From positions 3,582,001 through 3,646,000 of the forward strand of contig NZ_CP097329.1 in assembly GCF_030323025.1 (NCBI RefSeq): a stretch of DNA of 64,000 nt, given 5' to 3'. Positions 2,881 through 49,416 of the stretch are shown one piece after another. Positions within the stretch are counted from its first letter, which is position 1. The number at the start of each line of letters is the position of its first letter. Made by a program: the position numbers and the translations under genes. This DNA is from Pseudanabaena mucicola str. Chao 1806. Its GTDB lineage: Bacteria; Cyanobacteriota; Cyanobacteriia; Pseudanabaenales; Pseudanabaenaceae. The notes under the pieces are model-generated. The model was not told the origin of the DNA. It saw nothing but the letters and a program-made list of their open reading frames with translations, and made no database searches.

Positions 2881-4455
2881 CTAAACCTTAGTATTTTCAA
2901 TGCGTTGAAATATAGGAGTGGGTATTCCGAGCATCTGACCTGATTGCAGTATTCCCCAATTTGTATGACTCCAATCAGGTGGATTAGCTTCATCAAAACT
3001 TAATCCTAATTGTTGGTAAGCAGCAATACTAAGGTTTGATGTAATTGGAGCAATCAGATAAGCCGCTATCCTTACAGACTCCAACAAAGCATACAAAGTT
3101 TCGTTAACTTCTTTTTGTTTTCCTGCTTTGAATTGTTTCCACGGTGTGGTCTCGTCAATTAATTTGTTACAGTTCCAAATCAATTCTAATATTTTTTCAC
3201 AAGCTGCTCGAAAATTAAGATTTTGATAATCACTTGCCACGCGATCGCCTAAATTTGAGGCTTGTTCGATCACTGGTTTAATTAAATTTGATACCTCGCT
3301 GGGATCGCTGGGATCAATTGCAGGTATAGTTCCTTGACAATATTTATTTACCATTCCTAGACTGCGATTGAGTAAATTACCGAGACTGTTAGCGAGATCA
3401 GCATTAACAATTGAGATAAATCTCTCTTCACTAAAGTCACCATCTTTACCGAATTCAATTTCTTTAAGGAAGTAGTAACGAATAGCATCTGCCCCAAATC
3501 GATCAACTAGATCATAGGGATCAATGGTATTACCTAAGGTCTTACCCATTTTGAGCCCATCTTTTGTGAGCAATCCATGACCAAATACGCGCTTAGGTAA
3601 AGCTAGTCCTGCTGACATCAACATCGCTGGCCAATAAATCGCATGAAATCTTAATATATCCTTACCAATGATATGCAAATTGAAGGGATACCACTTCTTG
3701 AGTGCATTTTCTAAGGTTGGTTCATCATCGGGATCAAGCAAAGCTGTTACATAACCAAGCAAAGCATCAAACCAAACATAAATAGTATGGGTGGGATCGA
3801 TAGGGATCGGGAACCCCCAATCAAGGTTAACGCGAGAGATAGAAAAATCCTGCAAGCCTTGCTTCATAAAGCCAAGAACTTCGTTGCGACGGCTTTCAGG
3901 CTGAATAAAGTCAAGATTCATTTCGTGAAATTGAATGAGTGCGTCTTGATATTTCGATAGACGGAAGAAATAGTTGGGCTCATCTCGCCATTCACACACA
4001 ACATTGGTATGAATCGGGCAATGATGGCTGGTCGGAAGTTCGCGTTCTTCTTTAAATTCTTCGCAAGCCACGCAGTACCAGCCCTTTTGCTGATTTAAGT
4101 AAATGTCACCAGAATCATAGACCCGTTGAAAAAACTCATTCACGATCGCTTGATGTTTGGGTGCAGTGGTGCGCGTAAAGCGGTCAAAGCGAATATTTAG
4201 TCTTTCCCAAAGTGTATAAAATTCCGCAACTGTGCGATCGCAATGATCTTGGGGCGATAGATTATTTTTCTCGGCTGTACGCTGAATTTTTTGTCCATGC
4301 TCATCAGTACCTGTTACAAACATTACAGGATGACCTTTGAGTCGATAGAACCGTGCAAAAGCGTCGGCAGCGATCGTCGGATAGGCGCTGCCAATATGCG
4401 GACGATCATTGACGTAAAAAAGTGGTGTAGTTAAAGCAATCGGTTCTAAAGACAT
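2881..4455 (-). CDS. metG: Methionyl-tRNA synthetase
   Basis: 524 residues, the short cyanobacterial form without the C-terminal dimerisation/tRNA-binding extension. The class I HIGH equivalent is PHIGSAYPT near residue 19, a zinc-knuckle region with CVACEEF and CPIH lies near 129-149, and the KMSKS loop appears as KMGKTLGN near residue 303. It charges tRNA-Met in the cytoplasm. The start ATG at 4455 is 73 bp from the divergent tadA, so the two share a promoter region. Confidence 0.96.
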   Translation of the reverse strand: MSLEPIALTTPLFYVNDRPHIGSAYPTIAADAFARFYRLKGHPVMFVTGTDEHGQKIQRTAEKNNLSPQDHCDRTVAEFYTLWERLNIRFDRFTRTTAPKHQAIVNEFFQRVYDSGDIYLNQQKGWYCVACEEFKEERELPTSHHCPIHTNVVCEWRDEPNYFFRLSKYQDALIQFHEMNLDFIQPESRRNEVLGFMKQGLQDFSISRVNLDWGFPIPIDPTHTIYVWFDALLGYVTALLDPDDEPTLENALKKWYPFNLHIIGKDILRFHAIYWPAMLMSAGLALPKRVFGHGLLTKDGLKMGKTLGNTIDPYDLVDRFGADAIRYYFLKEIEFGKDGDFSEERFISIVNADLANSLGNLLNRSLGMVNKYCQGTIPAIDPSDPSEVSNLIKPVIEQASNLGDRVASDYQNLNFRAACEKILELIWNCNKLIDETTPWKQFKAGKQKEVNETLYALLESVRIAAYLIAPITSNLSIAAYQQLGLSFDEANPPDWSHTNWGILQSGQMLGIPTPIFQRIENTKV

Positions 4456-29716: not shown

Positions 29717-32700
29717 GTTTCCAATCGATCGCGTCCCCTAGCGAGTAGGGGAACAACTTCGAGGCGACCTTTTAGCTTGCGTGTGAGCGGTTTCCAATCG
29801 ATCGCGTCCCCTAGCGAGTAGGGGATATCCCGAATACAAACCTAATCTTAGTGCTGAGAATGCTAGTTTCCAATCGATCGCGTCCCCTAGCGAGTAGGGG
29901 AAATCATGGCGCTAGACATGGGACTTGGCAAAACGCTGTTTCCAATCGATCGCGTCCCCTAGCGAGTAGGGGAATTAAACAAGGTATGCCCATCTGGGGC
30001 GCGACAGTAGTTTCCAATCGATCGCGTCCCCTAGCGAGTAGGGGAGAAAACCTACTCAGCGATAATCTTAGATCCTCCATGGAGTTTCCAATCGATCGCG
30101 TCCCCTAGCGAGTAGGGGAGACTCTTCATGCTCAAATCTAGTGCATACCTTGATTTGGTTTCCAATCGATCGCGTCCCCTAGCGAGTAGGGGAAAATATC
30201 AAGAGTCCCGTAAACTGGGACTCTCCAAAGTTTCCAATCGATCGCGTCCCCTAGCGAGTAGGGGAATGAATGCGAGTGTGGCGAGATTGAATACATTAGC
30301 TGTTTCCAATCGATCGCGTCCCCTAGCGAGTAGGGGATTTTAGAGAGTTGCCCAGAGGCATACTCGGTTGAGTAGTTTCCAATCGATCGCGTCCCCTAGC
30401 GAGTAGGGGATAGAATGGCTATAGATCACGCTGCATACGAAGCAGGAGTTTCCAATCGATCGCGTCCCCTAGCGAGTAGGGGAATTAGCTCAATTTTATA
30501 CCTAATTTTTATATGCCAACGTTTCCAATCGATCGCGTCCCCTAGCGAGTAGGGGACAAGCGGGCTTCCGCCTTTGTATGAACTTTTGCCTTTATCGTTT
30601 CCAATCGATCGCGTCCCCTAGCGAGTAGGGGATTGATTCGCCATTTATTAGCTAATTTGTGGCACTCATAAAGTTTCCAATCGATCGCGTCCCCTAGCGA
30701 GTAGGGGAAATACCGCTACGGTGCTTACTCTATCGGGTGTATTCTGTTTCCAATCGATCGCGTCCCCTAGCGAGTAGGGGAACAAAGCAGATCGAGAGCG
30801 ACTGGCAAGAATTTTATGTTTCCAATCGATCGCGTCCCCTAGCGAGTAGGGGAAGAAGAAACTGAAACTTTTGAGATGAGTATTGCCTCGTTTCCAATCG
30901 ATCGCGTCCCCTAGCGAGTAGGGGAAACAAGCCTAAGCGCACTCCTAACCATCCTACTAAGTCGTTTCCAATCGATCGCGTCCCCTAGCGAGTAGGGGAT
31001 CAAATTCAACGCCTTTGAATACCCTAATGGGGTTGTTTCTGTAGTTTCCAATCGATCGCGTCCCCTAGCGAGTAGGGGAATCAAGAGATTCAAGCAATTA
31101 AACAAAGGGCAGAAATTGTTTCCAATCGATCGCGTCCCCTAGCGAGTAGGGGAATTTGATGGACTGCGTAAGCGATTGACTGGAACTCAGTTGGTTTCCA
31201 ATCGATCGCGTCCCCTAGCGAGTAGGGGATTCTCCTCAACAAGCAACCAAGATGATGCCGTTAATTCAGTTTCCAATCGATCGCGTCCCCTAGCGAGTAG
31301 GGGATCAGTAAGAGCTTCGCTAGGCTCTTTTAACACGGGATGTTTCCAATCGATCGCGTCCCCTAGCGAGTAGGGGATACGCAGTTTTGTACGAAATGGT
31401 AAACTTACACCCCGGTTTCCAATCGATCGCGTCCCCTAGCGAGTAGGGGACTTACAAGTGTGTAGTTCATGTCTTTTTTATTCTCTAGTTTCCAATCGAT
31501 CGCGTCCCCTAGCGAGTAGGGGAAGTTGAGGAGGTTTGCACAGGTTCAAAGCTTGAAATGTTTGTTTCCAATCGATCGCGTCCCCTAGCGAGTAGGGGAT
31601 TTACTGTGCAAATCCCAACTCTTGAAGACATTCAAGTTTCCAATCGATCGCGTCCCCTAGCGAGTAGGGGATAAATACTGGCGGTAAGTCAATTCACACT
31701 TATTACTGTTTCCAATCGATCGCGTCCCCTAGCGAGTAGGGGAATACCTTACAACAATGGGGTATAAGACCAACCTCATGTTTCCAATCGATCGCGTCCC
31801 CTAGCGAGTAGGGGATGTGGGGTAATCTCCAACTCAAAACAAACATCGTGGTTTCCAATCGATCGCGTCCCCTAGCGAGTAGGGGAAGTTGAGGAGGTTT
31901 GCACAGGTTCAAAGCTTGAAATGTTTGTTTCCAATCGATCGCGTCCCCTAGCGAGTAGGGGAGATTTCTCCTTAACTACAGGACTGATTGTGCAGAACTT
32001 GTTTCCAATCGATCGCGTCCCCTAGCGAGTAGGGGACAACCATCGCATCTGACAATGAGATTCGCTTTGATTTTGTTTCCAATCGATCGCGTCCCCTAGC
32101 GAGTAGGGGAAGCATCCGAAGCTATCAGCGATCTCTTGCCTCCTGCCATGTTTCCAATCGATCGCGTCCCCTAGCGAGTAGGGGAAACTAGAGAGCGTGT
32201 GGACTATGTTCTAGAGGAGTTAGTTTCCAATCGATCGCGTCCCCTAGCGAGTAGGGGATCTCTGGCGCTGACATTAATCTTCGGATTTTTTATGTTTCCA
32301 ATCGATCGCGTCCCCTAGCGAGTAGGGGAAATAATAGTGGCAAGGAGTTTGTTATGACCGTTGAATTCGTTTCCAATCGATCGCGTCCCCTAGCGAGTAG
32401 GGGATGTAGGGTAATAATACTATTGAGTTATCCTCTAACTCACAGTTTCCAATCGATCGCGTCCCCTAGCGAGTAGGGGAAAGCAGGAGTGGACTTACTC
32501 ATTGAGTTAAGGAATAGTTTCCAATCGATCGCGTCCCCTAGCGAGTAGGGGAAGAGAAGTCTAAGGTTAATCAGAATTGGGGTACTCTCACGTTTCCAAT
32601 CGATCGCGTCCCCTAGCGAGTAGGGGAATGAAGAAGGTGCTGCTGCTAATAGACAGTACATTGTTTCCAATCGATCGCGTCCCCTAGCGAGTAGGGGACT

Positions 32701-35700
32701 TTCGCGGCGATCGCCAAGTCTGCGACGACCAGATGCAAGTTTCCAATCGATCGCGTCCCCTAGCGAGTAGGGGAAGTTTTTTAGATTTAGGTTACGGCTA
32801 CTGCTTAATGTTTCCAATCGATCGCGTCCCCTAGCGAGTAGGGGAGTTACCTAGGTATTGACCAGTTTGATATTGCAGATATGTTTCCAATCGATCGCGT
32901 CCCCTAGCGAGTAGGGGACTCGCCATCCTGCCTCAATCGGTGTAGCAAAAGGAGTAGTTTCCAATCGATCGCGTCCCCTAGCGAGTAGGGGAATGGCATT
33001 ATTTCAAGTAAAGACTGGATCTGAGTACCGTTTCCAATCGATCGCGTCCCCTAGCGAGTAGGGGAATAGCACTGTGGTTTGTGAAGTGACAGGCTGGGAT
33101 GTTTCCAATCGATCGCGTCCCCTAGCGAGTAGGGGAAGGAGATTGATGAATTTGTTGCAAATTGTGACGGTGACGTTGAGTTTCCAATCGATCGCGTCCC
33201 CTACTCGCTAGGGGATCAAGGTTTTGCGTCTATTCGGAAAAGTCCTTTCCCGTTTCCAATCGATCGCGTCCCCTAGCGAGTAGGGGAGTCTGCTTTTGAT
33301 ATTGTTTATTGGAGACAGTCTTAGTTTCCAATCGATCGCGTCCCCTAGCGAGTAGGGGACTAATACTAAATAAGAGAGTCTACTATGTCTTTACAAGTTT
33401 CCAATCGATCGCGTCCCCTAGCGAGTAGGGGACTGTAACGTCATGGACAAAGCATCTGAGTTAGTTATGTTTCCAATCGATCGCGTCCCCTAGCGAGTAG
33501 GGGAATTGCCGAGAATCAGCGCCTAGTTGAGTCAGTCGTTGGTTTCCAATCGATCGCGTCCCCTAGCGAGTAGGGGATACTCCGTAACCAGCCATAATAT
33601 GGTGGCTATTTGCTGGTTTCCAATCGATCGCGTCCCCTAGCGAGTAGGGGATTACCAAGCAATGACTAAGCTCAATGAAGCTGGTAGGTTTCCAATTGAT
33701 CGCGTCCCCTAGCGAGTAGGGGAGCAAATATTTTATATTTAAACTCATGTATAGGTTTATTTTGTTTCCAATCGATCGCGTCCCCTAGCGAGTAGGGGAT
33801 CACTCGGTAAGTCGTTTTACGCCAAAGCCAAGAAGTTTCCAATCGATCGCGTCCCCTAGCGAGTAGGGGACGTTGCAATTGAAGCAGCCGTAGCTGAGCA
33901 AGCTTATCAGTTTCCAATCGATCGCGTCCCCTAGCGAGTAGGGGATTGATTCGCCATTTATTAGCTAATTTGTGGCACTCATAAAGTTTCCAATCGATCG
34001 CGTCCCCTAGCGAGTAGGGGAAATACCGCTACGGTGCTTACTCTATCGGGTGTATTCTGTTTCCAATCGATCGCGTCCCCTAGCGAGTAGGGGAACAAAG
34101 CAGATCGAGAGCGACTGGCAAGAATTTTATGTTTCCAATCGATCGCGTCCCCTAGCGAGTAGGGGAAGAAGAAACTGAAACTTTTGAGATGAGTATTGCC
34201 TCGTTTCCAATCGATCGCGTCCCCTAGCGAGTAGGGGAAAAATTTTATGTATATCAAAACCGATTTGACCAACGTTTCCAATCGATCGCGTCCCCTAGCG
34301 AGTAGGGGACTAATGACATCGCAAGGGCTGAGCAGCTAGCAGCAAAGGTTTCCAATCGATCGCGTCCCCTAGCGAGTAGGGGAAATAGTAAAGGTCAAAT
34401 TACGGCTTTCTTCCGTTTTTGTTTCCAATCGATCGCGTCCCCTAGCGAGTAGGGGATTTATGGCGATGAGATGAGAACTCAAAGCCAGTCAAGTTTCCAA
34501 TCGATCGCGTCCCCTAGCGAGTAGGGGATATCATCGCAAAAAGGATAAGTACGGAAATATCACAGGTTTCCAATCGATCGCGTCCCCTAGCGAGTAGGGG
34601 AAGTAAGTAATTTTTTTTAATCAGTGCAGTGGCAAGGTGTTTCCAATCGATCGCGTCCCCTAGCGAGTAGGGGATCAACTATGTCTGAAGGAGTGCATTG
34701 CAATATATTGTTTCCAATCGATCGCGTCCCCTAGCGAGTAGGGGAACATTACTTGTAATGAGTAAAGACAGAGGTTCGATTCCTCTAGTTTCCAATCGAT
34801 CGCGTCCCCTAGCGAGTAGGGGAAATTTATTACTCAACTACTCAAGTGAAATATTTAGAGTTTCCAATCGATCGCGTCCCCTAGCGAGTAGGGGACAGCC
34901 CTGAAGTTGCACAAGAAGCATTGACCGCTATGTTTCCAATCGATCGCGTCCCCTAGCGAGTAGGGGATCTACGGCGAATGCCGGGGGCTCAAAACTGATT
35001 ACAGGTTTCCAATCGATCGCGTCCCCTAGCGAGTAGGGGAATCAGCGCCGCTTGCCAATGGGAGAAGTCTATACCAGCAGTTTCCAATCGATCGCGTCCC
35101 CTAGCGAGTAGGGGATTTATGGGTTTGGTTTGTCGTTCCATTAGGTTTACGTTTCCAATCGATCGCGTCCCCTAGCGAGTAGGGGAACCTTAGAATTTAA
35201 GTTGACCTTGAATCGTAGCCAAAGTTTCCAATCGATCGCGTCCCCTAGCGAGTAGGGGACTTTACTGCTGTCGCTCAAAATATCCCCGCACCCGAGTTTC
35301 CAATCGATCGCGTCCCCTAGCGAGTAGGGGAGCAAGCTTTCTCTTTCACTCCAGATAGTAAGCTCATTGTTTCCAATCGATCGCGTCCCCTAGCGAGTAG
35401 GGGACACTAATTTGATGTATGCCTACGCAAAACCTTAATCTTGGTTTCCAATCGATCGCGTCCCCTAGCGAGTAGGGGAAGAGGATAGACTTAAAGCTTT
35501 TGAAGGCATGGACTTAAAGTTTCCAATCGATCGCGTCCCCTAGCGAGTAGGGGATTCGGTATTCTTTTCCTTCTCAGCTTGCTCTAGCTTGGGTTTCCAA
35601 TCGATCGCGTCCCCTAGCGAGTAGGGGAACTTCTTTATGCTGTGTTGGTTTTGTTGTAATTCAAGTTTCCAATCGATCGCGTCCCCTAGCGAGTAGGGGA

Positions 35701-35887
35701 TTAGGAAACAACACAACACAAAAAAAGAGGACAAAGTGTTTCCAATCGATCGCGTCCCCTAGCGAGTAGGGGAGGAGCACGAGCAGTATGGAGAGGTATT
35801 CGGGCTATCTGCGTTTCCAATCGATCGCGTCCCCTAGCGAGTAGGGGAAAGGACAACTATGACTACACCAATTACCACTTAATTCTA

Positions 35888-36888
35888 CGTGAGTTCGACG
35901 AACTAAAAGCAAGCAGGAGGTAGAGCAGGCAAGCCTTTGACTTGAAGATCCAAAGCAGGTTTAGTCTCGCGATAGGAATAAGCAACTAACCCAGCCAAAA
36001 GGTTAACTAGGAAATTGAAAAAGCTGCGATGTCTTGAATGCTCAATCTGAGAAATGTTTTTCAGTTGGTCATTGACCGCCTCAATAATTGCTCGTTTGCG
36101 GAGCAAAATCTTATCGATTAGCTTGACTAGACAGTTTTTCATTTTTTTCTTACGCTTGGTAATCAGTTCTAACCCTTGCTGATACAACTGCTCAAATAGT
36201 TTTTGGGAGATATAACCACGGTCGCCAAATAGCTTTCCAAATAGATCCTGAGTCATGTCAGGTACAGGTTCACGATCATCGACATTGGCGGGAGTAAGTT
36301 TAAAAGCTAGCAATTCTCCCTTGTCATTGACAATCACATGGAGTTTGAAACCAAAGTGCCAACCAACGGAGTTTTTACCCCAATTGACCATTCCTTTGAA
36401 TACTTTGTGGGCATGGGCGCGACAGTTTACACAGACATCGATTGGGGTTGAGTCAATGAACGATATACCTGTCACTTCCCCTTTGCGTGTATGCAGGAAG
36501 CAACATAACAACATCAATGTCCATGGCATTAACTCCACAAATCTTGTATAACTTACCAAGTGTGGGAAAGCCTTTCGCCAAAATGGTAATACGGTCATCG
36601 TGTAGAACTCTTTGAATGTCTTGTATCCTGACCCATGAAAGCCAATCACGATGGTCATCACTTCACTTAGTCTCATTCGTGACTGGCTTTTCCTTTCTCC
36701 TATCATTGACGGTAACATTGGTTGCTCTTGCCAGTGTTTTTCAAAACTTTGGCAGAAATCATCGACTTCACAGAAGATTTGGGTGATATCCAAGTGCGAT
36801 ACGATATTGTCCATATTGCTGAGGCTTTTAGTTCTTCAAACCTAGTCTCAGCTTTTCTTTTGCTTTTGTCTACTCCGTCGAACTCACG
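35888..36888 (-). mobile_element. IS982-family insertion sequence inside a spacer
   Basis: 1001 bp with terminal inverted repeats beginning CGTGAGTTCGACG. It is flanked by a 9-bp direct repeat TTAATTCTA (35879-35887 and 36889-36897). Removal restores a normal 39-nt spacer between two perfect repeats, so the insertion is precise and recent. Confidence 0.93.
35903..36814 (-). CDS. IS982-family transposase
   Basis: 303 residues, full length for the family, with an uninterrupted frame. The DDE motif acidic residues can be placed in ISFIDSTPIDVC, LTPANVDDREPV and LFGDRGYIS, followed by the KRAIIEAVNDQLKNISQIEHSRHRS region carrying the final Glu. The protein catalyses transposition of the surrounding 1-kb element and appears intact. 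Confidence 0.93.
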   Translation of the reverse strand: MDNIVSHLDITQIFCEVDDFCQSFEKHWQEQPMLPSMIGERKSQSRMRLSEVMTIVIGFHGSGYKTFKEFYTMTVLPFWRKAFPHLVSYTRFVELMPWTLMLLCCFLHTRKGEVTGISFIDSTPIDVCVNCRAHAHKVFKGMVNWGKNSVGWHFGFKLHVIVNDKGELLAFKLTPANVDDREPVPDMTQDLFGKLFGDRGYISQKLFEQLYQQGLELITKRKKKMKNCLVKLIDKILLRKRAIIEAVNDQLKNISQIEHSRHRSFFNFLVNLLAGLVAYSYRETKPALDLQVKGLPALPPACF

Positions 36889-37881
36889 TTAATTCTAGTT
36901 TCCAATCGATCGCGTCCCCTAGCGAGTAGGGGATCCATCTACCGCAAAAAGAAGATGAAACCACTTAATTAGTTTCCAATCGATCGCGTCCCCTAGCGAG
37001 TAGGGGATTTCTTTGACCCAATCGCTTGCCTTAGAAAAATCAGTTTCCAATCGATCGCGTCCCCTAGCGAGTAGGGGATGAATCCGCAATCATCGAGCAA
37101 TTCGCTAGCTCAAGTTTCCAATCGATCGCGTCCCCTAGCGAGTAGGGGATTCGTTATAAGCGGTTACAACAAGGTGATGGATTAAATCAGTTTCCAATCG
37201 ATCGCGTCCCCTAGCGAGTAGGGGATCTCATCAGCGATCACCCGATCGCGGTGTGCTTGCCTGGTTTCCAATCGATCGCGTCCCCTAGCGAGTAGGGGAT
37301 CGACAAAAGGAATATTTTCGAGAATACCGCTTGAGCGTTTCCAATCGATCGCGTCCCCTAGCGAGTAGGGGAAGTACTAGTTCAAAATATCAACGGGACA
37401 ATTACAAGTTTCCAATCGATCGCGTCCCCTAGCGAGTAGGGGATCGACATAAACGGTATGCGGAATAGCCATGATGTAAGGGTTTCCAATCGATCGCGTC
37501 CCCTAGCGAGTAGGGGACTTTCAATTGATATTCTTTTCTGTCTGCATTTACTATGTTTCCAATCGATCGCGTCCCCTAGCGAGTAGGGGATTGCGAACAC
37601 CAATCTTAGGGAATGAAAAATTGGCTGGTGTTTCCAATCGATCGCGTCCCCTAGCGAGTAGGGGACGCTGTAGATACTGAAAGAGGTGAAGTTATATTTA
37701 GGTTTCCAATCGATCGCGTCCCCTAGCGAGTAGGGGATTGCTATTGACCTACTGCGCGGTTCTGACTTAGCGTTGGTTTCCAATCGATCGCGTCCCCTAG
37801 CGAGTAGGGGATTGATACGCAAGTATTAACTGAGGATACTAAGGAGTTTCCAATCGATCGCGTCCCCTAGCGAGTAGGGGA

Positions 37882-38081: not shown

Positions 38082-38360
38082 TCAAACGATTACAGAACTA
38101 GGCGGCTGAGACAATGGCGGCTCACCCCAGATCACCACCTGACCCAAAGTATGCCTTGAAATCGGATAGAAACGCACACTATCATCACTCATTTTCACCA
38201 CCTTTGCTAACCGCACTCTCAACTCCTCAAACTTGCGATCATTAAGCAAACACTCAAACGCACTAAACTGAACCCTCCGACCATAACCCTCCAACAGATT
38301 AAACACCCGTTTCCGCCGCTTATCATCAGAAACATCATAAATCACCACATACAACATCAT
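38082..38360 (-). CDS. cas2: CRISPR-associated protein Cas2
   Basis: 92 residues with the Cas2 ferredoxin-like start MLYVVIYDVSDDKRRKRVFNLLEGYGRRVQFSAFECLL, where the Asp in YDVSDD is the conserved acidic residue. Cas2 bridges two Cas1 dimers in the spacer integrase. Its ATG overlaps the cas1 stop (ATGA), so the two are translationally coupled. Confidence 0.96.
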   Translation of the reverse strand: MMLYVVIYDVSDDKRRKRVFNLLEGYGRRVQFSAFECLLNDRKFEELRVRLAKVVKMSDDSVRFYPISRHTLGQVVIWGEPPLSQPPSSVIV

Positions 38361-39358
38361 CTAATCAAATAAGGCTTATAACCACCACTCGGATCATACA
38401 CATAACCCTTAAACTTCCGCACTTGACCCATCAACAGATCCCAACGCGGCACATCCTCACCCGCATCATTCCGCACCCTCTCCTCCATCCGCATCAGAAA
38501 AGCCCGTAAAAACTTCCGCCGACCCGACTCATTCAAAAAACACCCACCATCCCGAAACTCAAAATCACCCACCCTACTCATCATTCCATTATTAATCAAA
38601 TACAACACCAAACTATCCACAATCGGCGCACGAAACTCCTCGATCGCATCCGAAGCCAAAGCAGGATGCCGATCCGAATCCTGATGTAAAAACGCAAAAT
38701 AAGGATCAAGCCCCTGAAGTTCAATCAACGACAGCAAATGATTCCACAACACCATATACCCAAAACTCAACAACGCATTCACAGGATTACTCGGCGGACG
38801 CTTCACCCGCCCCCCAAACCTAAAATCTTGACCATAGCGATCGCCCAAACACAACCCAAACCCCTCAAAATAACTAGCCGCCGCCGCACCCTCCACCCCC
38901 AACAGAGCCTCCACACTATCCATCACCAAAACCCGATCCGCCAAATAATCCAAATTCCGCACAATTTTATCCAAACCCTCCACCTCCCGATTCCGCACCT
39001 GCCGCATCAACAACACCCGCCCATTGAGAATCTTCGCCCGCACAATCTGCCGCGCCATCAACAACCGTTCCATCAAAGACAACTGCTGCTGATAGCGCCC
39101 CAACTGGCGATAGCCACGACCAATCGCCATCACCCGCCCATAGCAATAGCCCATCCTCGACAAATAAGCGATCGGAATATCCCGCCGCAAACATTCCCTA
39201 ATCGCCTGAGTCGTCACCTGCGACTTCCCAAAAATTAGCACCAACTCCAACAAAGGCAACTGCACCTCCTGAAGTACAGTCTGCCCCTGCTTCACCACCA
39301 AAAGTTCCTGCGACAAACCCACATAACAACCCTGCATCGACACATACAAACTCTGCAT
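38357..39358 (-). CDS. cas1: CRISPR-associated endonuclease Cas1
   Basis: 333 residues from the ATG at 39358 (a TTG one codon upstream is also in frame). The catalytic metal ligands can be placed at the Glu of VEALLGVEGAAAASYF, the His of LHQDSDRHPALASD, and the acidic cluster DAIEEFRAPIVD. Cas1 is the integrase for new spacers. Its start overlaps the stop of the small membrane protein gene as TGATG, and its stop overlaps cas2, so membrane protein-cas1-cas2 form one coupled unit. Confidence 0.96.
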   Translation of the reverse strand: MQSLYVSMQGCYVGLSQELLVVKQGQTVLQEVQLPLLELVLIFGKSQVTTQAIRECLRRDIPIAYLSRMGYCYGRVMAIGRGYRQLGRYQQQLSLMERLLMARQIVRAKILNGRVLLMRQVRNREVEGLDKIVRNLDYLADRVLVMDSVEALLGVEGAAAASYFEGFGLCLGDRYGQDFRFGGRVKRPPSNPVNALLSFGYMVLWNHLLSLIELQGLDPYFAFLHQDSDRHPALASDAIEEFRAPIVDSLVLYLINNGMMSRVGDFEFRDGGCFLNESGRRKFLRAFLMRMEERVRNDAGEDVPRWDLLMGQVRKFKGYVYDPSGGYKPYLIR

Positions 39359-39615
39359 CAATCCCTCCTTCTTAACTCACTACTATCCCGCGCCGCACCC
39401 AAACTATCCCGCCGATCATCCTGCAACAAATAGACCAAAATGCGATCGCTCACCGTCAGAGTTCCATAGGTCGCCACTACAATCAACAAAGTATTCACAA
39501 TCACCGCAAACAAACCCATCGGCGCAATCAACAAAATCACCAAACTAATCGCCCCGTTCGCCACAGACACCGACAAATTCCGTACCCTAGCCACCTTTGC
39601 CGTCAAAAAATACAT
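39358..39615 (-). CDS. Small membrane protein coupled to cas1
   Basis: About 85 residues from the ATG at 39615 (GAGG seven bases upstream; a GTG at 39627 is the outer alternative). Two hydrophobic segments, VANGAISLVILLIAPMGLF and VIVNTLLIVVATYGTL, are followed by a charged tail (DDRRDSLGAARDSSELRRRD). The stop overlaps the cas1 start as TGATG. I do not recognise the family; the coupling suggests a role with the adaptation module or its membrane context. Confidence 0.7.
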   Translation of the reverse strand: MYFLTAKVARVRNLSVSVANGAISLVILLIAPMGLFAVIVNTLLIVVATYGTLTVSDRILVYLLQDDRRDSLGAARDSSELRRRD

Positions 39616-39674: not shown

Positions 39675-40325
39675 ATGGTCAGTCAAACCAGCAAACCTGA
39701 AATCGTCTATCCCGACAGCGATGGCAAACCAATGGCAGACAACACCAAACAATTTGAACTCATTGTCGAAATCAAAAAAGGCTTAGACCTCCTCTACATC
39801 AACGATCCACAAGTCTTTATTGCAGGCGACCTCCTCTGGTATCCCATCCAAGGACAACCCCAAACCGTCACCGCCCCCGATGTCATGGTGGTTTTCGGTC
39901 GTCCCAAAGGCGATCGCGGCTCCTACAAACAATGGGAAGAAGACAACATCGCCCCCCAAGTCGTCTTCGAGATTCTCTCCCCCAGCAACAGCCGTATCGA
40001 AATGAGCAAAAAACTTCTCTTCTTCGATCGCCACAAAGTCGAAGAATACTACCTCTACGACCCCGACACCAACCTCCTCGAAGTGTGGATACGCACCACC
40101 GAAGGACTAGAACCAATCCCCCAACCCGATAACTGGACAAGCCCCCGCCTCGGTATCCGTCTCGACACCAACTCAGGTCGCCTCCAACTCTACAAACCCG
40201 ACGGCACAAAATTTCACACATACATCGAGGTCAATGAACTACTAGAGCAAGAACGCGATCGCGCCAACCAAGCCGAAGCCCTACTCCAAAAATACCGCGA
40301 TCGCTACGGTGAACTACCCAGCTAA
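39675..40325 (+). CDS. Uma2 family (DUF820) protein within the CRISPR-Cas locus
   Basis: 216 residues, ATG preceded by AGGAGA. Core motifs: TAPDVMVVFGRPKGDRGSYKQW, APQVVFEILSPSNSRIEMSKKL and RHKVEEYYLYDPDTNLLEVW, consistent with the PD-(D/E)XK-like Uma2 fold; the C-terminus is a short coiled coil (ELLEQERDRANQAEALLQKY). It is the only plus-strand gene between cas1 and the CARF genes, and its stop overlaps the CARF gene end by 4 bp. Confidence 0.85.
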   Translation: MVSQTSKPEIVYPDSDGKPMADNTKQFELIVEIKKGLDLLYINDPQVFIAGDLLWYPIQGQPQTVTAPDVMVVFGRPKGDRGSYKQWEEDNIAPQVVFEILSPSNSRIEMSKKLLFFDRHKVEEYYLYDPDTNLLEVWIRTTEGLEPIPQPDNWTSPRLGIRLDTNSGRLQLYKPDGTKFHTYIEVNELLEQERDRANQAEALLQKYRDRYGELPS

Positions 40326-41599
40326 GGTTGATAACGAGAAATTTCATCTAACGCCCTTTGATGAATCCTCGTAAATAAACTCGCCACTGCCAAAGAACCA
40401 AAATTCTTAAGCGCGATCGCATTTAGACATCCCAACAATCGCCGCTCCAAATCACGTCTAGAACGAATATCCTCACCCCAAGCCGCCAACACATTTCGCT
40501 CCGAAATACCACCCAACTTGTGAGCAATCACATTTCGCATCACCCGCGCACTATCCCAATACACACGAAAATCCAAACTCACCGCCGTACTAGGAATATG
40601 CGCCTCTAACAACCCTCGAAAAATATACCCTCTTACCTCCACTTCATGACTCTTCTGTAACTGCTCATCATAGCGATACTGCAATACAGGATAACGCCGT
40701 AATATACTTGGCTTCAGCAACGGATAGCGATCCTGCCGCGCCACCACATCATCAGGGAAAGTCACCATCACCCATTCCCAAAGCGCCCCCTCCACCGCTC
40801 GAAAACTATGCTGCATCGCCTCACTCGTATTCTCTTGCTCCAAGCGCACCAAAGCCGTATAAGCCTGTTCGTAAGCCATCCACCACCAAGTTTCACCCTG
40901 CCTCTTCTCAGCATCGCTCAAATAGCTCTTAGCTAAACGATAGAACTGATCAAACTGTCCTTGATGCCAAGCAATCCCCGCTTTCAACAAATTGACCAAC
41001 ACAGGCGATCTCTCCGCTAATCCACTACCCTCCAAATTCGCCAACGCCGAACCATAGTTAAAACCCTCAATCTGACCCTTCACTAGTTTTAGATCAAACT
41101 CCTGACGCAACACACTCACATCCGTCTCAAATACCCGCATTTGTCCCTCCCGCATCTCATTGGGATTCCGCACCTGCCATACCTGACCATTCGTCACATA
41201 GCCCGCCGCCTGTAACAAACTAAACGCCGATTTCATCGCAGGAGTCCCCGACGACGCATTAAACTCAATGCGATCGCCCTTCTCCATATTCACACTCGCC
41301 AAATCCAAACCCCGCCTTGCCTCCTGCGCCGCCTTCAGCAAATCCGTCGGATCATTCGACAACTCCCAACTCGCAGGAACCAACTCCACATCACCACCAT
41401 CAATTCCCAACTCCGACATCAACCATTCCTTAGTTTCCTTAGCCCCCGTTGCCGTCCCTTCCGTATAAATCAAGACAACCTTCTTAATCACAGTTTCCTG
41501 ACTCACTAAAGCCCTGATCAAAGTCACAATCGACCCCTCACCCGATTTGCTCCCAAAAGGATCTTGCTGACCCACAAAAGACAAAACAATACTAGCCAT
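40322..41599 (-). CDS. CARF-HEPN protein 1 (Csm6/Csx1-like ring nuclease-type effector)
   Basis: 425 residues. The first 170 form a CARF-like Rossmann domain with the glycine-rich ligand loop NASSGTPAMKSAF at 114-126. The C-terminal half is helical and contains RNVIAH at 355-360, the R-x4-H catalytic motif of HEPN ribonucleases. In type III systems the Cas10 palm makes cyclic oligoadenylate, which binds CARF and activates the HEPN RNase. It lies in the Cmr neighbourhood, minus strand like the cmr genes. Confidence 0.82.
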   Translation of the reverse strand: MASIVLSFVGQQDPFGSKSGEGSIVTLIRALVSQETVIKKVVLIYTEGTATGAKETKEWLMSELGIDGGDVELVPASWELSNDPTDLLKAAQEARRGLDLASVNMEKGDRIEFNASSGTPAMKSAFSLLQAAGYVTNGQVWQVRNPNEMREGQMRVFETDVSVLRQEFDLKLVKGQIEGFNYGSALANLEGSGLAERSPVLVNLLKAGIAWHQGQFDQFYRLAKSYLSDAEKRQGETWWWMAYEQAYTALVRLEQENTSEAMQHSFRAVEGALWEWVMVTFPDDVVARQDRYPLLKPSILRRYPVLQYRYDEQLQKSHEVEVRGYIFRGLLEAHIPSTAVSLDFRVYWDSARVMRNVIAHKLGGISERNVLAAWGEDIRSRRDLERRLLGCLNAIALKNFGSLAVASLFTRIHQRALDEISRYQP

Positions 41600-41612: not shown

Positions 41613-42200
41613 TTAAATTCCTGCTTTTACAAAAAACTGCTCAGCCGTCACCGCCAAATCAGTAAACAACTCATCCGTAATTAGGCGATCGCCCCGATAA
41701 GTCTCAGGAGCGCGATCGGCATAAAACACCGTCAAAGTTCTATACATCACATCAATTACCCAAACCCTCAACACTCCCGCCTTTAGATAATCGCCAGCCT
41801 TCGCCACAAATTCCCTAAAAGTCTGCCCTTCTGACATAATCTCAATCACCAACTCAGGAGCCACAGGACACATCTCATTCCCCACCCCAGACGGCAATTG
41901 CCCCAGCGAGATATAAGTCAAATCAGGCACAGGACACCAATCCTGACCATTGCGCTTTAACACAATTCCCCATTCAGGATAAACAAAACCCTTACCCTCA
42001 AACAAAGTTCGCAAAAAAATTAACAATTCAGCTTGTAGAGAAGCATGAAATCTTTTGGGAGACATCTTTTTCACCGCTTGACCATCGATAAATTCGTAAT
42101 TCTGATCTGATTCAGGACTTGCCAAAAACTCCGCCAGATTCATCTTCTGGACTCCATCCGATATTTCTCCAACATCTTCTTTAACAACAGTAAAAGTCAT
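41613..42200 (-). CDS. Uma2 family (DUF820) protein within the CRISPR-Cas locus
   Basis: 195 residues. Motifs: MNLAEFLASPESDQNYEFID at the start, VPDLTYISLGQLP, APELVIEIMSEGQTF with the conserved Glu, and the AGDYLKAGVLRVWVID block. It is 14 bp upstream of the CARF-HEPN 1 start on the same strand, so the two are probably co-transcribed. Confidence 0.85.
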   Translation of the reverse strand: MTFTVVKEDVGEISDGVQKMNLAEFLASPESDQNYEFIDGQAVKKMSPKRFHASLQAELLIFLRTLFEGKGFVYPEWGIVLKRNGQDWCPVPDLTYISLGQLPSGVGNEMCPVAPELVIEIMSEGQTFREFVAKAGDYLKAGVLRVWVIDVMYRTLTVFYADRAPETYRGDRLITDELFTDLAVTAEQFFVKAGI

Positions 42201-42307: not shown

Positions 42308-42865
42308 TTATCCAAATATGTCCTTTAGAGTCATCACTATCGCAGGAAAAGCGATCGGCGTAAAAGCGCTATCAGGAGAGTCTATTAGGGTTTGTTTGAG
42401 ATAAGCCTTGCCATTCGGTTGATGATAAATCTCCACAATCTCTCTTTCTACATTAGCAATCCAATATTCTAAGATTTCATATTCAGCATAAAGTCTAAGC
42501 TTCTTTGTCTGGTCGTATCTCAAGCTAGAATCAGCAACCTCGATCAATAACAACACATCTTCCGCTTCAGGAAATTTGTCAGCATAAAAGTCATCACGGG
42601 GGCGTAAAATCACAATATCAGGTTGCGGTTCAGAATAATCTGGCAAACGAATTGAGTTATGGATACTAATAATTCCTTTTTCTTTGATAGTGTTATGCAG
42701 GAAATAGTTGAGTCGATTGATGGTGGCAATATGCTTCAAGCCGTTTGGTGGCATAACAATAATTTCTCCTTCGATTAACTCCACTCGGTTTTCAGGATGA
42801 AAGATACCTGCTTTACCCATCTGTTGATATTGCTCTACATCAAATTTATATTTCAGTAATTGCAT
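42308..42865 (-). CDS. Uma2 family (DUF820) protein within the CRISPR-Cas locus
   Basis: 185 residues with the full Uma2 pattern: YQQMGKAGIFHPENRVELIEGEI, PQPDIVILRPRDDFY, VLLLIEVADSSLRYDQTKKLRLYA and YEILEYWIANVERE. Same strand as CARF-HEPN 2 and located 33 bp after it, so it belongs to that transcription unit. Confidence 0.87.
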   Translation of the reverse strand: MQLLKYKFDVEQYQQMGKAGIFHPENRVELIEGEIIVMPPNGLKHIATINRLNYFLHNTIKEKGIISIHNSIRLPDYSEPQPDIVILRPRDDFYADKFPEAEDVLLLIEVADSSLRYDQTKKLRLYAEYEILEYWIANVEREIVEIYHQPNGKAYLKQTLIDSPDSAFTPIAFPAIVMTLKDIFG

Positions 42866-46463: not shown

Positions 46464-46880
46464 TTAGTCTCCCTTTACTTTGTAGCGTTGTGTCCACCAA
46501 ACCAGAGAATCGCAAAGTTGGGTTAATACCATTAGCGCTACACGCTGATCTGCTAATGGCATAGACCATATAGCTTTTGCCATTGCCTTGATGTCATCAG
46601 TAGAATTCACGTTGTCATTAGGAAGCTTAATCCCTGCCTCATCAAGAATGCTATGGAGTTTTTCCCATACTTGTTTCCAATAATCAGATTTTTTCTGCTC
46701 CTTGCCTTTTAACCGCAAATGTTCACCCCAAAAACGTTCTAGTCCATAGGCGATCGTCATCCGCATCTTGTGAGATTCGTTCAGTACATCCTTAGTATTC
46801 CGAAACTCCAAAACTAGCTCTTGAGCATAGTAATCAAGATCGTAGGGTCGCCATCCATTGTTGTTTGATGTATTTGCCAT
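46464..46880 (-). CDS. cmr5: Type III-B small subunit Cmr5
   Basis: 138 residues, all-helical, size and position of Cmr5. Features include RPYDLDYYAQELVLEFRNT and a C-terminal helix ADQRVALMVLTQLCDSLVWW. The small subunit lines the complex opposite to the Cmr4 backbone. It is 4 bp upstream of the RAMP fusion start, consistent with one operon. Confidence 0.8.
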   Translation of the reverse strand: MANTSNNNGWRPYDLDYYAQELVLEFRNTKDVLNESHKMRMTIAYGLERFWGEHLRLKGKEQKKSDYWKQVWEKLHSILDEAGIKLPNDNVNSTDDIKAMAKAIWSMPLADQRVALMVLTQLCDSLVWWTQRYKVKGD

Positions 46881-46910: not shown

Positions 46911-47182
46911 TTATTTCTTTGGCTGGTCTTGTTTAGATTTAGTCTCTTCAAATAAGCTCAGAGTCACTTTAGTCCGTCCAAAGCCAATTGACTCCAAGCC
47001 ACCAAAATAAAATTCTCGCGGCTGAGCAATATCTGCATCAATCAAATAGTCATCCCAGTTTACCGCTTTGCCCTCATTGACCTCACGCATTGCCAACGGG
47101 AAAGCAAGAACTGTACCTTCTGGCAAAGCTTCTAAATTAAAAAATGCTCCCTTCTTAGCCTTTTTTTGCTTGTCTTCTAGCG
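46911..47182 (-). pseudogene. cmr4: C-terminal remnant of cmr4
   Basis: A 90-codon open frame without a good start. It begins just inside the end of cmr3 and reads AKKGAFFNLEALPEGTVLAF, then REFYFGGLESIGFGRTKVTL, which aligns with the end of Cmr4 (the GG-x-E-x-x-G-G/F-G loop). The N-terminal two thirds of Cmr4, including the catalytic Asp loop, are absent. A TTG at 47126 could start a 71-residue product, but this would not be a functional backbone subunit. Confidence 0.7.
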
Positions 47183-47698
47183 CTACTTAGGATGGAGAAT
47201 TGGGGTAAATTTCCAAGGTGTTTCTTTGCATAAACCTGAACTTAAAACTGTTTCTAGCGGTTTCTGCCAACTACCAATTTTTTGCCATTTATACTCACTA
47301 CTAACTTCCTTCTTATCGTCAGCCAGTTTCCATTTACCTGAAGCTAACACCCATTTGTTATAGCTTTCTTTTTTGTGACGAGTTTTAGCATCAACTATCT
47401 CTTCACCAAAGACACGCGATCGCGGTATTGGCACATAGAAATTCTCAGGATTACTATCCTCAGCCCAAAATCCACCAGCAACCGTTAAATCTTTTTTGAT
47501 TTGATCGATTTCAGTTTTACTAGATTTTAAATTTTCTTGATAACTACGCAATATTAAGCCTGATAGAACAGAAGCATCAGGTGGAAATTTTGTCCCTGAT
47601 TTGCCCACCAAGTTCTCAGCAGACAAGAAAGCGCCTGAACTGCCATAGAGAAAGCCTAAAGGCTTCACTTTGATTAGAAAATTGAATCTTTTTAGCAT
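47183..47698 (-). pseudogene. cmr3: cmr3 truncated after about 170 codons
   Basis: The N-terminus FLIKVKPLGFLYGSSGAFLS with FPPDASVLSGLI and VAGGFWAEDSNPENFYVPIP matches Cmr3, the subunit that binds the crRNA 5' handle. The frame ends at PWKFTPILHPK followed by TAG, where full-length cyanobacterial Cmr3 continues for another 150 or more residues. The stop lies in the cmr4-derived sequence, out of frame with it, which indicates a deletion fusing cmr3 to cmr4. Start at ATG 47698 overlaps the cmr2 stop; a GTG at 47707 is the alternative. Confidence 0.72.
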
Positions 47699-49416
47699 AG
47701 TTGCCACCCTACTTGAATCATATTTTCAATCCATTCAATTACTGATTTTGGCTCACTTCCTCCTGTGATTTTTATGCGATTTTCAGATAGCTCGTCACCT
47801 TTATCTTTTCCAAAATACAGATTCAATAGCTCTATCGCCATATCTAGATTTTTAGGCTTCGGACTTTTTTGCAGTATGGCATGACGCGCTTTAAGGTGTG
47901 CCAAATCACCATAAACATGACTCCAGTTAGTACCTCCATCCCGATCTCGATAATCCTTCAACCATTTCAAATACTCCCAAGGTGTAGTCCACTGCACAAA
48001 TTGACCATTGTTAAACACAACCCGAATCGTCACGCGATCGCGCCCTAAACTCTTAGCCAACTTCTCCGCCTCACGGCAATGCTGCAACACATCGCGCTGC
48101 GGCACACTATGCCCTGCCCACACAAAACCCACACTGAGACTAACATCAGGCTCATCACCTTCATTTACCCTCAAGCCTTTACTTCGCATATTCTCGCGTA
48201 ACTTTTCCCATTGATCGCGTAAACCACATAACCAATCAACAACCTCTTGCTTGTCTCTTTGTGGTTTGTCCTCAGTGCCATAAATTACACCAAGAAAATC
48301 ATCCCCACCCGCATAAACCACACGACCGAGATCAAAACGCTTGAAGTCATGTCCCCAATCTCGTAAACAAAGACTAAACTCTCTAACTTGATCAGCGTTA
48401 GACAAGCTGTTGAGATAATTGCCAATGCGATCGCCATCACCCATAAACCAACCAGTCCAATAGGTTTCTTGAGTTTTTTCGTTCTTTCGGAAATACTTTG
48501 GAAAGCTCTCTACCTCAAACGCCTTTCGATCTTCCTGTGTGATCACTCTGTAATAGTCGATTTGATTTCTAATATCTTCGTAAGTTACCAAGCGTTTGAT
48601 TAATTCAGGAATACTTAAACGCTCATTTTCATTGATATAAGCCCGATCATTCTCTTTACCGTTTGGATCAGTTTTTATAGCTAGAGCAGTGTAAAAAGCC
48701 TTGATTTCTTCGGATAAATCTTGTTGATTTTGCTTACTTTCACGAGTGATTTGACGATCCATGTTTGGATAGGCGATCGCATCATGCCCCGACAGACTAG
48801 AGCTTTCACCATTCCAGTTCGGGATAGTCCAAGCACGGCGCAACTTCCGAGTTTCTAGATCTCGCATTGCACTATGAATAGGATTGTTTTGGTCATCCTT
48901 AGAGTTGTTCTGACCGACAAATATCTCCCATGCGTGCATTTCCCATCTTTTCCATGACATCTTCCAGTCATACTTTTTCCAGTCATATTTATGATTGATA
49001 TCGTTTTTAACTTTACTTTCCACCCAATCTTTGCAAGCTATGATAATTTCGCTCCAAGCATTATCTAGGGTGTCCCGAAATAGATTAAAAGCCCGATCTC
49101 GCTCAATTTCTCCGACAATCAAAATACGATTCGGCATTCCTTGTATGAGGTCAATACTTAGTTCTCCATCTTTAATTGCTGGAGAAATTACTTTGATACC
49201 ATTAAGTTTTTTTGCCTCTTCGACAATGCGATAGCTCAAATAAGACAAAATTTGTGATGCACCATAGAGATCGCGCAACTTACGAGACTTCTCGATAAAG
49301 CCTTGCACAGGTGCAAATGTAATTACCGTGTATTTCACATCTTTAGTTTCTTGGGTTTGTGGCTTTTCATTAATTTGTAATGCTGTCGTCACGATCGCTT
49401 TACCTCCCACACGCAT
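47692..49416 (-). CDS. cmr2: Type III-B Cas10 subunit Cmr2 (no HD domain seen)
   Basis: 574 residues (a GTG at 49392, eight codons in and 10 bases after GGAGG, may be the true start). TVITFAPVQGFIEKSRKLRDLYGASQILSYLS begins the first palm-like domain, FMGDGDRIGNYL lies near 324, and the cyclase motif VVYAGGDDFLGVIYG puts GGDD at 370-373. There is no N-terminal HD nuclease domain. This subunit should make cyclic oligoadenylate on target RNA binding, which fits the two CARF-HEPN genes downstream. First gene of the cmr operon. Confidence 0.88.
   Translation of the reverse strand: MRVGGKAIVTTALQINEKPQTQETKDVKYTVITFAPVQGFIEKSRKLRDLYGASQILSYLSYRIVEEAKKLNGIKVISPAIKDGELSIDLIQGMPNRILIVGEIERDRAFNLFRDTLDNAWSEIIIACKDWVESKVKNDINHKYDWKKYDWKMSWKRWEMHAWEIFVGQNNSKDDQNNPIHSAMRDLETRKLRRAWTIPNWNGESSSLSGHDAIAYPNMDRQITRESKQNQQDLSEEIKAFYTALAIKTDPNGKENDRAYINENERLSIPELIKRLVTYEDIRNQIDYYRVITQEDRKAFEVESFPKYFRKNEKTQETYWTGWFMGDGDRIGNYLNSLSNADQVREFSLCLRDWGHDFKRFDLGRVVYAGGDDFLGVIYGTEDKPQRDKQEVVDWLCGLRDQWEKLRENMRSKGLRVNEGDEPDVSLSVGFVWAGHSVPQRDVLQHCREAEKLAKSLGRDRVTIRVVFNNGQFVQWTTPWEYLKWLKDYRDRDGGTNWSHVYGDLAHLKARHAILQKSPKPKNLDMAIELLNLYFGKDKGDELSENRIKITGGSEPKSVIEWIENMIQVGWQLC

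What the first reader, a model, noticed from the sequence alone, without database searches (positions are those of the whole stretch)
39358..39615. Unrecognised small two-helix membrane protein coupled to cas1
An 85-residue protein with two hydrophobic segments overlaps cas1 as TGATG, and cas1 overlaps cas2 as ATGA. Such tight coupling suggests a real third member of the adaptation module. Membrane partners of Cas1-Cas2 are not part of the standard system.
Basis: partly seen in the sequence, partly recalled or inferred. Interest (0 to 1): 0.6.

Follow-up and report, generated by a model that had tools for sequence, protein, structure and literature searches.

The report
Csx18 membrane protein beside CRISPR cas1
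The small membrane-type protein encoded just before cas1 is a real, selected gene of the already named but functionally unstudied cyanobacterial family Csx18, and across genomes it evolves together with the CRISPR memory-making enzymes rather than with the virus-attacking part, which hints that these bacteria may record viral DNA at a membrane.

Summary
The 85-residue ORF (39358-39615, minus strand) is Csx18: NCBIfam NF040558, 86.4 bits against a cut-off of 50; one PADLOC Csx18 model is described as "adaptation associated". The TGATG and ATGA overlaps are present.

74 of 388 cyanobacterial genomes have Csx18 above the cut-off. cas1 lies next to it in 80 of 87 loci, in two arrangements with two separate Cas1 clades: same strand (Cmr genes, III-B, where seen) and head-to-head (III-D/III-A-like genes where seen). 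Both hydrophobic segments are kept in 88 of 89 sequences; dN/dS is 0.10-0.39 in 31 close pairs. Csx18 distances follow Cas1 (rho 0.715; Cas1-Cas2 0.732), not the effector Cmr4 (0.075).

It is an accessory, not an obligate part: 14 of 76 and 5 of 20 Cas1 rows of the two clades lack it, and some genomes keep it without cas1.

Most likely mechanism, inferred: a hairpin anchor whose cytoplasmic tail holds Cas1-Cas2 at the membrane. My searches showed no paper on its function.

The parts
39358..39615 (-). csx18: 85-aa small membrane-type protein of family Csx18
   Evidence: NCBIfam NF040558.1 86.4 bits, cut-off 50; PADLOC PDLC01382 E 2.2e-28 and PDLC01041 E 2.1e-26; ORF
39523..39576 (-). first hydrophobic segment, residues 14-31 (N20 and T24 nearly invariant; R12 just before it)
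39490..39528 (-). core motif I30-T42: I30 A31 P32 G34 L35 A37 V38 T42 invariant in 59 sequences; putative turn without charge in 85 of 89
39451..39513 (-). second hydrophobic segment, residues 35-55, followed by D57 (D in 93%, E in 6% of 89)
39361..39444 (-). charged C-terminal tail, residues 58-85, ending SSELRRRD, which fits the S-x-[LIM]-x-[RKQ] motif of same-strand tails but not their [DEN]-[LI]-[DEQ]-[RP] end motif
38357..39358 (-). cas1 (ATG at 39358; alternative TTG at 39361)
   Evidence: Pfam PF01867 E 1.2e-83, TIGR00287
38082..38360 (-). cas2
   Evidence: Pfam PF09827 E 4.8e-23, TIGR01573
37882..38081 (-). stretch between cas2 and the array; probable leader (inferred from the repeat ending GAAAC on the minus strand)
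   Evidence: position; inference
36898..37881 (.). cas-proximal part of the CRISPR array (36-nt repeat)
29717..35848 (.). distal part of the array; the 96 repeats found in both parts are identical over 36 bases, 92 spacers of 25-50 nt, 87 distinct
40322..41599 (-). CARF-HEPN (Csm6/Csx1-like) ancillary effector
   Evidence: PADLOC CARF1--CARF_HEPN E 2.5e-86
47692..49416 (-). short Cas10/Cmr2 of a type III-B system (GGDD motif read by eye)
   Evidence: Pfam Cmr2_N and Cas10-Cmr2_palm2

Best explanation
Csx18 is an accessory part of the spacer-acquisition module of cyanobacterial type III CRISPR systems. Shown: it is a conserved, selected protein with two hydrophobic segments, coded with cas1-cas2, and its sequence distances follow Cas1 rather than the Cmr effector. 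Inferred: it inserts as a hairpin with both ends in the cytoplasm, oligomerises through the invariant IAPLGLAAV...T core, and its charged tail docks on Cas1 (or Cas2), holding the integrase at a membrane. There the integrase would catch DNA ends as they enter the cell: a location-based choice of foreign DNA in modules where I found no Cas4.
For: cas1 next to csx18 in 80 of 87 loci; overlap of 1 or 4 bases in 18 of 66 same-strand loci, and 51 of 66 spacings between -11 and 30 bases. Two separate Cas1 clades carry it in two gene orders, so the link was kept or made twice. Distances: csx18-cas1 rho 0.715 and cas1-cas2 0.732 over 60 loci; csx18 to its 5' neighbour csx1 0.288 over 21 loci; csx18-cmr4 0.075, cas1-cmr4 0.080, cmr4-cmr3 0.855 over 31 loci. 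Membrane type: both segments hydrophobic in 88 of 89, N-tail mean 2.80 Lys/Arg against 0.08 Asp/Glu. Purifying selection. Tail motifs in the same-strand group: S.[LIM].[RKQ] in 33 of 71 against 6.7 in shuffles, [DEN][LI][DEQ][RP] at the end in 20 of 71 against 0.4; relatedness inflates both. No match to one Cas4 query (phmmer, E up to 1e-3) in these loci; in Synechocystis 6803 the III-D and III-B modules have csx18, the I-D module has cas4. The window's module looks live: 96 identical repeats, 0 of 33 cas-proximal spacers shared with a same-species genome.
Against: No binding, localisation or acquisition data. Dispensable: 14 of 76 and 5 of 20 Cas1 rows of its clades lack it, and 10 of 14 such loci with enough DNA still have arrays, some with 39-45 repeats. 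Kept without cas1: L093 and L096 share a junction where cas1-cas2 are gone; G105, G115 and G125 show no Cas1 match in the whole genome; four cas1-less copies (L096, L121, L125, L126) keep an intact core, only one (L127) has a changed core. Physical linkage could give part of the correlation; a 5' WYL gene also tracks csx18 (0.658, 14 loci), and cmr3 does weakly (0.169; 0.111 given cas1, 22 of 500 permutations as high). Head-to-head tails lack the motifs. AlphaFold2 gave one long helix, not a hairpin, in both runs (pTM 0.41 and 0.37); covariation supports a hairpin only weakly and is confounded by the two groups.
Confidence: 0.4

Rival explanations
1. Csx18 is a membrane effector or safety device of type III immunity: an oligomer that harms the membrane when the system fires, carried near cas1 only by operon habit.
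For: Type III systems do use membrane effectors (Cam1, Csx23, CorA: passages of PMC11229360); the effector genes that I could name in its loci are type III; it survives with III-B effectors where cas1-cas2 are deleted and in three genomes without a Cas1 match.
Against: No sensor or soluble domain in 85 aa, no Pfam match for the window protein; its distances do not follow Cmr4 (0.075); it stays beside cas1 whatever side or strand the Cmr genes take; kept in the window although cmr3-cmr4 is broken.
Confidence: 0.15
2. Csx18 regulates Cas1-Cas2 negatively: it parks the integrase at the membrane and frees it on infection, limiting uptake of self DNA.
For: Same linkage and co-evolution data; loss with Cas1 and arrays intact fits a modulator.
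Against: No data on direction of effect; a large array beside a Csx18-less Cas1 does not show faster uptake.
Confidence: 0.2
3. Csx18 acts in something else that travels with these modules (for example DNA uptake, or upkeep of plasmids that bear them), without touching Cas1.
For: 21 cyanobacterial plasmid records carry it; it can be lost or kept apart from cas1.
Against: Two separate Cas1 clades and gene orders, and distances that follow Cas1 as closely as Cas2's do, are hard to explain without a functional tie.
Confidence: 0.15
4. Not a gene: a chance open frame beside cas1.
For: None found.
Against: Family hit, invariant columns, dN/dS below 0.4 in close pairs.
Confidence: 0.01

Closest known systems
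Csx18 (NCBIfam NF040558; PADLOC PDLC01382, PDLC01041)
   Same: Sequence over the curated cut-off, size, two hydrophobic segments, place beside cas1 in cyanobacterial CRISPR loci.
   Different: Nothing of note; the window copy has M33 and F36 in the core where most have L and A.
csx18 of Synechocystis sp. PCC 6803 plasmid pSYSA (WP_011153738, WP_011153759)
   Same: Same annotated family; one copy on the strand opposite to cas1 in the III-D locus, one overlapping cas1 in the III-B locus.
   Different: Longer (104 and 122 residues from the annotated coordinates); in the III-D locus another small gene lies between csx18 and cas1.
Cas4 and reverse transcriptase-Cas1, other add-ons of the adaptation module
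   Same: Genes added to cas1-cas2 in some subtypes (RT-Cas1: passages of PMC5513706 and PMC5541045; Cas4 recalled).
   Different: Csx18 is a small membrane-type protein; one Cas4 query found nothing in its loci; four of five long Cas1 frames in my set, taken as RT-Cas1 by length alone, lie in other clades (the fifth, L154, is a Csx18-less row of the head-to-head clade).
Membrane effectors Cam1, Csx23, CorA (type III) and Csx28 (type VI-B)
   Same: CRISPR-associated membrane proteins (passages in PMC11229360 and PMC12669027).
   Different: Those act in interference, and Cam1 and Csx23 carry a soluble sensor domain; Csx18 has none and follows Cas1.

Membership tests
Csx18 (NF040558) | whole-protein score over the curated cut-off of 50 bits | tested here: met
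   86.4 bits, residues 4-65 on profile 2-63 of 64
Csx18 (NF040558) | lies in a CRISPR-cas locus | tested here: met
   cas1, cas2, Cas10/Cmr2, CARF-HEPN genes and array around it
Csx18 (NF040558) | cyanobacterial family | tested here: met
   80 of the 80 named loci kept (of 96 relatives) are cyanobacteria by title; 0 of 14 control genomes; none in viral contigs or phage records
Core (obligate) Cas1-Cas2 adaptation complex | always present with its Cas1 | tested here: not met
   absent from 14 of 76 and 5 of 20 Cas1 rows of the two clades
Accessory member of the adaptation module | coded with and co-evolving with Cas1 more than with the effector | tested here: met
   linkage not fully excluded (WYL control)
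Accessory member of the adaptation module | physical contact with Cas1-Cas2 or effect on spacer uptake | not testable with these tools
   needs pull-down and acquisition assay
Type III membrane effectors (Cam1, Csx23) | soluble sensor domain for the second messenger joined to the membrane part | tested here: not met
   85 aa, no Pfam match, no PDB relative by sequence
Helical hairpin membrane protein | two crossing helices with a turn | tested here: inconclusive
   hydropathy and conserved Pro-Gly turn for it; AlphaFold2 single long helix; weak covariation

The most novel reading that the evidence does not exclude
Csx18 is a dedicated membrane tether of the CRISPR integrase: type III modules without Cas4 or a fused reverse transcriptase pick foreign DNA by where it enters, not by sequence, a membrane-localised adaptation complex. 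The tandem second copy with a changed core would be a paralogue forming mixed oligomers.
Probability: 0.25. Interest if true: 0.8.

Novelty: new member of a known kind. Interest (0 to 1): 0.4.

Why it matters
How type III systems choose what to memorise without a PAM-reading Cas4 is, to my knowledge, open. A small membrane-type protein whose history follows Cas1-Cas2 and not the effector, in two separate Cas1 lineages, makes membrane-localised spacer acquisition directly testable; Synechocystis 6803 already holds both arrangements beside a Csx18-free module.

Tried and rejected
Rejected: chance frame; unknown gene (it is Csx18); obligate Cas1 subunit (19 Cas1 rows without it); a shared replacement gene in Csx18-less loci (one search listed hydrophobic frames in some of 19 loci, none Csx18-like or shared by eye except a possible relic in L134); viral origin (searches found nothing). 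Core loss in L127 as proof of coupling to cas1: four other cas1-less copies keep the core.

Led nowhere: PDB by sequence (0 hits); Pfam and PHROGs for 59 members (only weak hits); AlphaFold2 twice (single long helix), so no fold search was run; spacer matches of 29800-35900 in phage records (0). Paper searches for the name and for recalled Synechocystis locus tags showed no paper on Csx18; the one hit for "csx18" is a flavivirus polymerase paper seen in the listing only, and the one hit for the tags (PMC4963859) was seen in the listing only. The 2018-2019 surveys of type III accessory genes are recalled and were not read; subscription papers are mostly not in the library.

Gene labels come from 20 PADLOC-named representatives or from me; the group labelled "tnp?" proved to be Uma2 where tested, and the 138-aa gene at 46464-46880 called Cmr5 in my maps was not confirmed (no Pfam match).

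Full report
What is there. The minus strand at 39615-39358 codes 85 residues, MYFLTAKVARVRNLSVSVANGAISLVILLIAPMGLFAVIVNTLLIVVATYGTLTVSDRILVYLLQDDRRDSLGAARDSSELRRRD. Its stop overlaps the cas1 start as TGATG, and cas1 overlaps cas2 as ATGA. NCBIfam names it Csx18 (86.4 bits, cut-off 50); two PADLOC Csx18 models match, one described as "adaptation associated", one as "CAS-I,CAS-III; associated". Cas1 and Cas2 are clear. Upstream lie two CARF-HEPN genes, a Cmr6-like gene and a short Cas10/Cmr2, so the locus is type III-B. Beyond cas2 is an array in which the 96 repeats found are identical over 36 bases, split by a DDE transposase gene.

Distribution. In 388 class members 76 genomes had a match, 74 over the cut-off, and 0 of 14 control genomes. 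It is patchy: of the 25 genomes of the window's genus, only two (G000 and G001) have it. I fetched DNA round every match; 89 proteins in 87 loci were confirmed with my own profile, and the two sub-cut-off matches were dropped. The 80 named loci kept, of 96 relatives found in one genome for each of 84,980 species, are all cyanobacterial by title. No relative was found in viral contigs or phage records; 21 plasmid records carry it.

Place. cas1 is next to csx18 in 80 of 87 loci: 66 on the same strand, 14 head-to-head. Of the 7 others, L092 ends soon after csx18; L093 and L096 share a junction where cas1-cas2 are missing; L121, L125, L126 and L127 have no cas1 in the DNA held. Three genomes with Csx18 (G105, G115, G125) show no Cas1 match at all. 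In the same-strand group the Cmr genes, where in view, lie before or behind and on either strand, and csx18 stays with cas1. The head-to-head group goes with Csm3, Csx10, Cas10, Csx3-AAA and WYL genes, named from representatives. In Synechocystis 6803 both arrangements occur on pSYSA, while the third module, type I-D, has cas4 and no csx18.

Cas1 tree. 117 Cas1 rows (quick tree): a same-strand clade with 62 of 76 rows carrying Csx18 and a head-to-head clade with 15 of 20; the other 21 rows have none. So two separate Cas1 lineages bear Csx18, and the label needs 13 changes on the tree, so gain or loss was repeated. Of the Csx18-less loci, L132 keeps a remnant of the frame with the core gone; two close Cas1 rows, L099 and L156, differ in having Csx18 or none found.

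Selection and sequence. dN/dS is 0.10-0.39 in 31 pairs with dS 0.05-0.70; over all 60 pairs with dS up to 1.0 the median is 0.27 and the highest 0.85, the high values at dS above 0.8. The pairs are not independent. Invariant in 59 sequences: L28 I30 A31 P32 G34 L35 A37 V38 T42 D57. Both hydrophobic segments hold in 88 of 89; 4 of 89 have a charge in the turn; the N-tail is basic. Same-strand tails share motifs above shuffles, head-to-head tails do not.

Co-evolution. Over 31 loci with all four genes: csx18-cas1 rho 0.518 (0 of 500 permutations as high), csx18-cmr4 0.075, csx18-cmr3 0.169, cas1-cmr4 0.080, cas1-cmr3 0.145, cmr4-cmr3 0.855; partial csx18-cas1 given cmr4 0.515, csx18-cmr4 given cas1 0.04, csx18-cmr3 given cas1 0.111. 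Over 60 loci csx18-cas1 0.715, cas1-cas2 0.732, csx18-cas2 0.511; in 12 head-to-head loci csx18-cas1 0.715. As linkage control, the csx1 gene on the other side gives 0.288 (21 loci); a WYL gene there gives 0.658 (14 loci), so linkage is not excluded in that subset. The adaptation genes, Csx18 among them, thus move largely apart from the effector genes.

Against obligate function. 10 of 14 Csx18-less loci with enough DNA have arrays, against 57 of 62 with Csx18.

Structure. AlphaFold2 gave one helix 5-79 (mean pLDDT 82.9, pTM 0.41) and 5-62 for a relative (77.2, 0.37). So long a helix cannot cross a membrane straight; a Pro-Gly hairpin is my reading, with weak and confounded covariation.

Mechanism. 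Shown: gene, family, linkage, selection, co-evolution with Cas1. Inferred: membrane insertion, both ends inside, tail docking on Cas1-Cas2, capture of entering DNA. That early infection and free ends feed spacer uptake is recalled from other systems.

Literature. Searches for Csx18 and for membrane partners of the adaptation module showed no paper on its function (listings only, apart from the papers next named). In the passages shown of PMC12669027, PMC5513706, PMC5541045, PMC3575380 and PMC11229360 no membrane partner of Cas1 was seen; "csx18" has 0 occurrences in the main text of PMC12669027 and PMC11229360.

Noticed in passing
window 46959-47698 (minus): The type III-B effector looks broken: a truncated cmr3 (matching residues 1-157 of a relative) runs straight into the end of cmr4 (matching 197-267), while the same-species genome G226 has a 263-aa cmr4 and a cmr3 of at least 301 aa, cut by the fetched end. 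The adaptation frames are open.
   Followed up: partly
window 29717-37881: 96 repeats identical over 36 bases, 92 spacers (87 distinct); none of 33 cas-proximal spacers of the same-species genome G226 is shared.
   Followed up: partly
window 35903-36814: A DDE transposase gene (PF13612) sits inside the CRISPR array.
   Followed up: no
window 39675-40325, 41613-42200, 42308-42865: Uma2 (PF05685, putative restriction endonuclease) genes lie between cas genes here, and genes of the same clusters recur in related loci; one lies head-to-head with csx18, 59 bases apart.
   Followed up: partly
G000:C1:588038-588220 (L116) and L160: The same genome has a second Csx18, of the head-to-head group, and elsewhere a fragment of that group's Cas1.
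   Followed up: partly
L113 7668-8270 and L115 7685-8186: Two genomes have two csx18 genes in tandem before cas1; the one nearer cas1 has a changed core (MILQMPRLGTAAV), yet dN/dS between the genomes is 0.10 for that copy too.
   Followed up: partly
L132 near 3848-3910; L134 upstream of cas1: A decayed csx18 beside intact cas1-cas2, and a possible relic frame in L134.
   Followed up: partly
L093 end; L096 after 5955: Two genomes of one family (L096 has the length of the Gloeomargarita sp. SKYG116 contig L216) share a junction where cas1-cas2 are missing between csx18 and a dnaJ-like gene (label by eye), and csx18 stays open.
   Followed up: partly
L120 7637-7981, also L110, L117, L123, L045, L132: Another small protein group with hydrophobic stretches (cluster 35, no Pfam match for L120) lies just before csx18 or cas1.
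   Followed up: no
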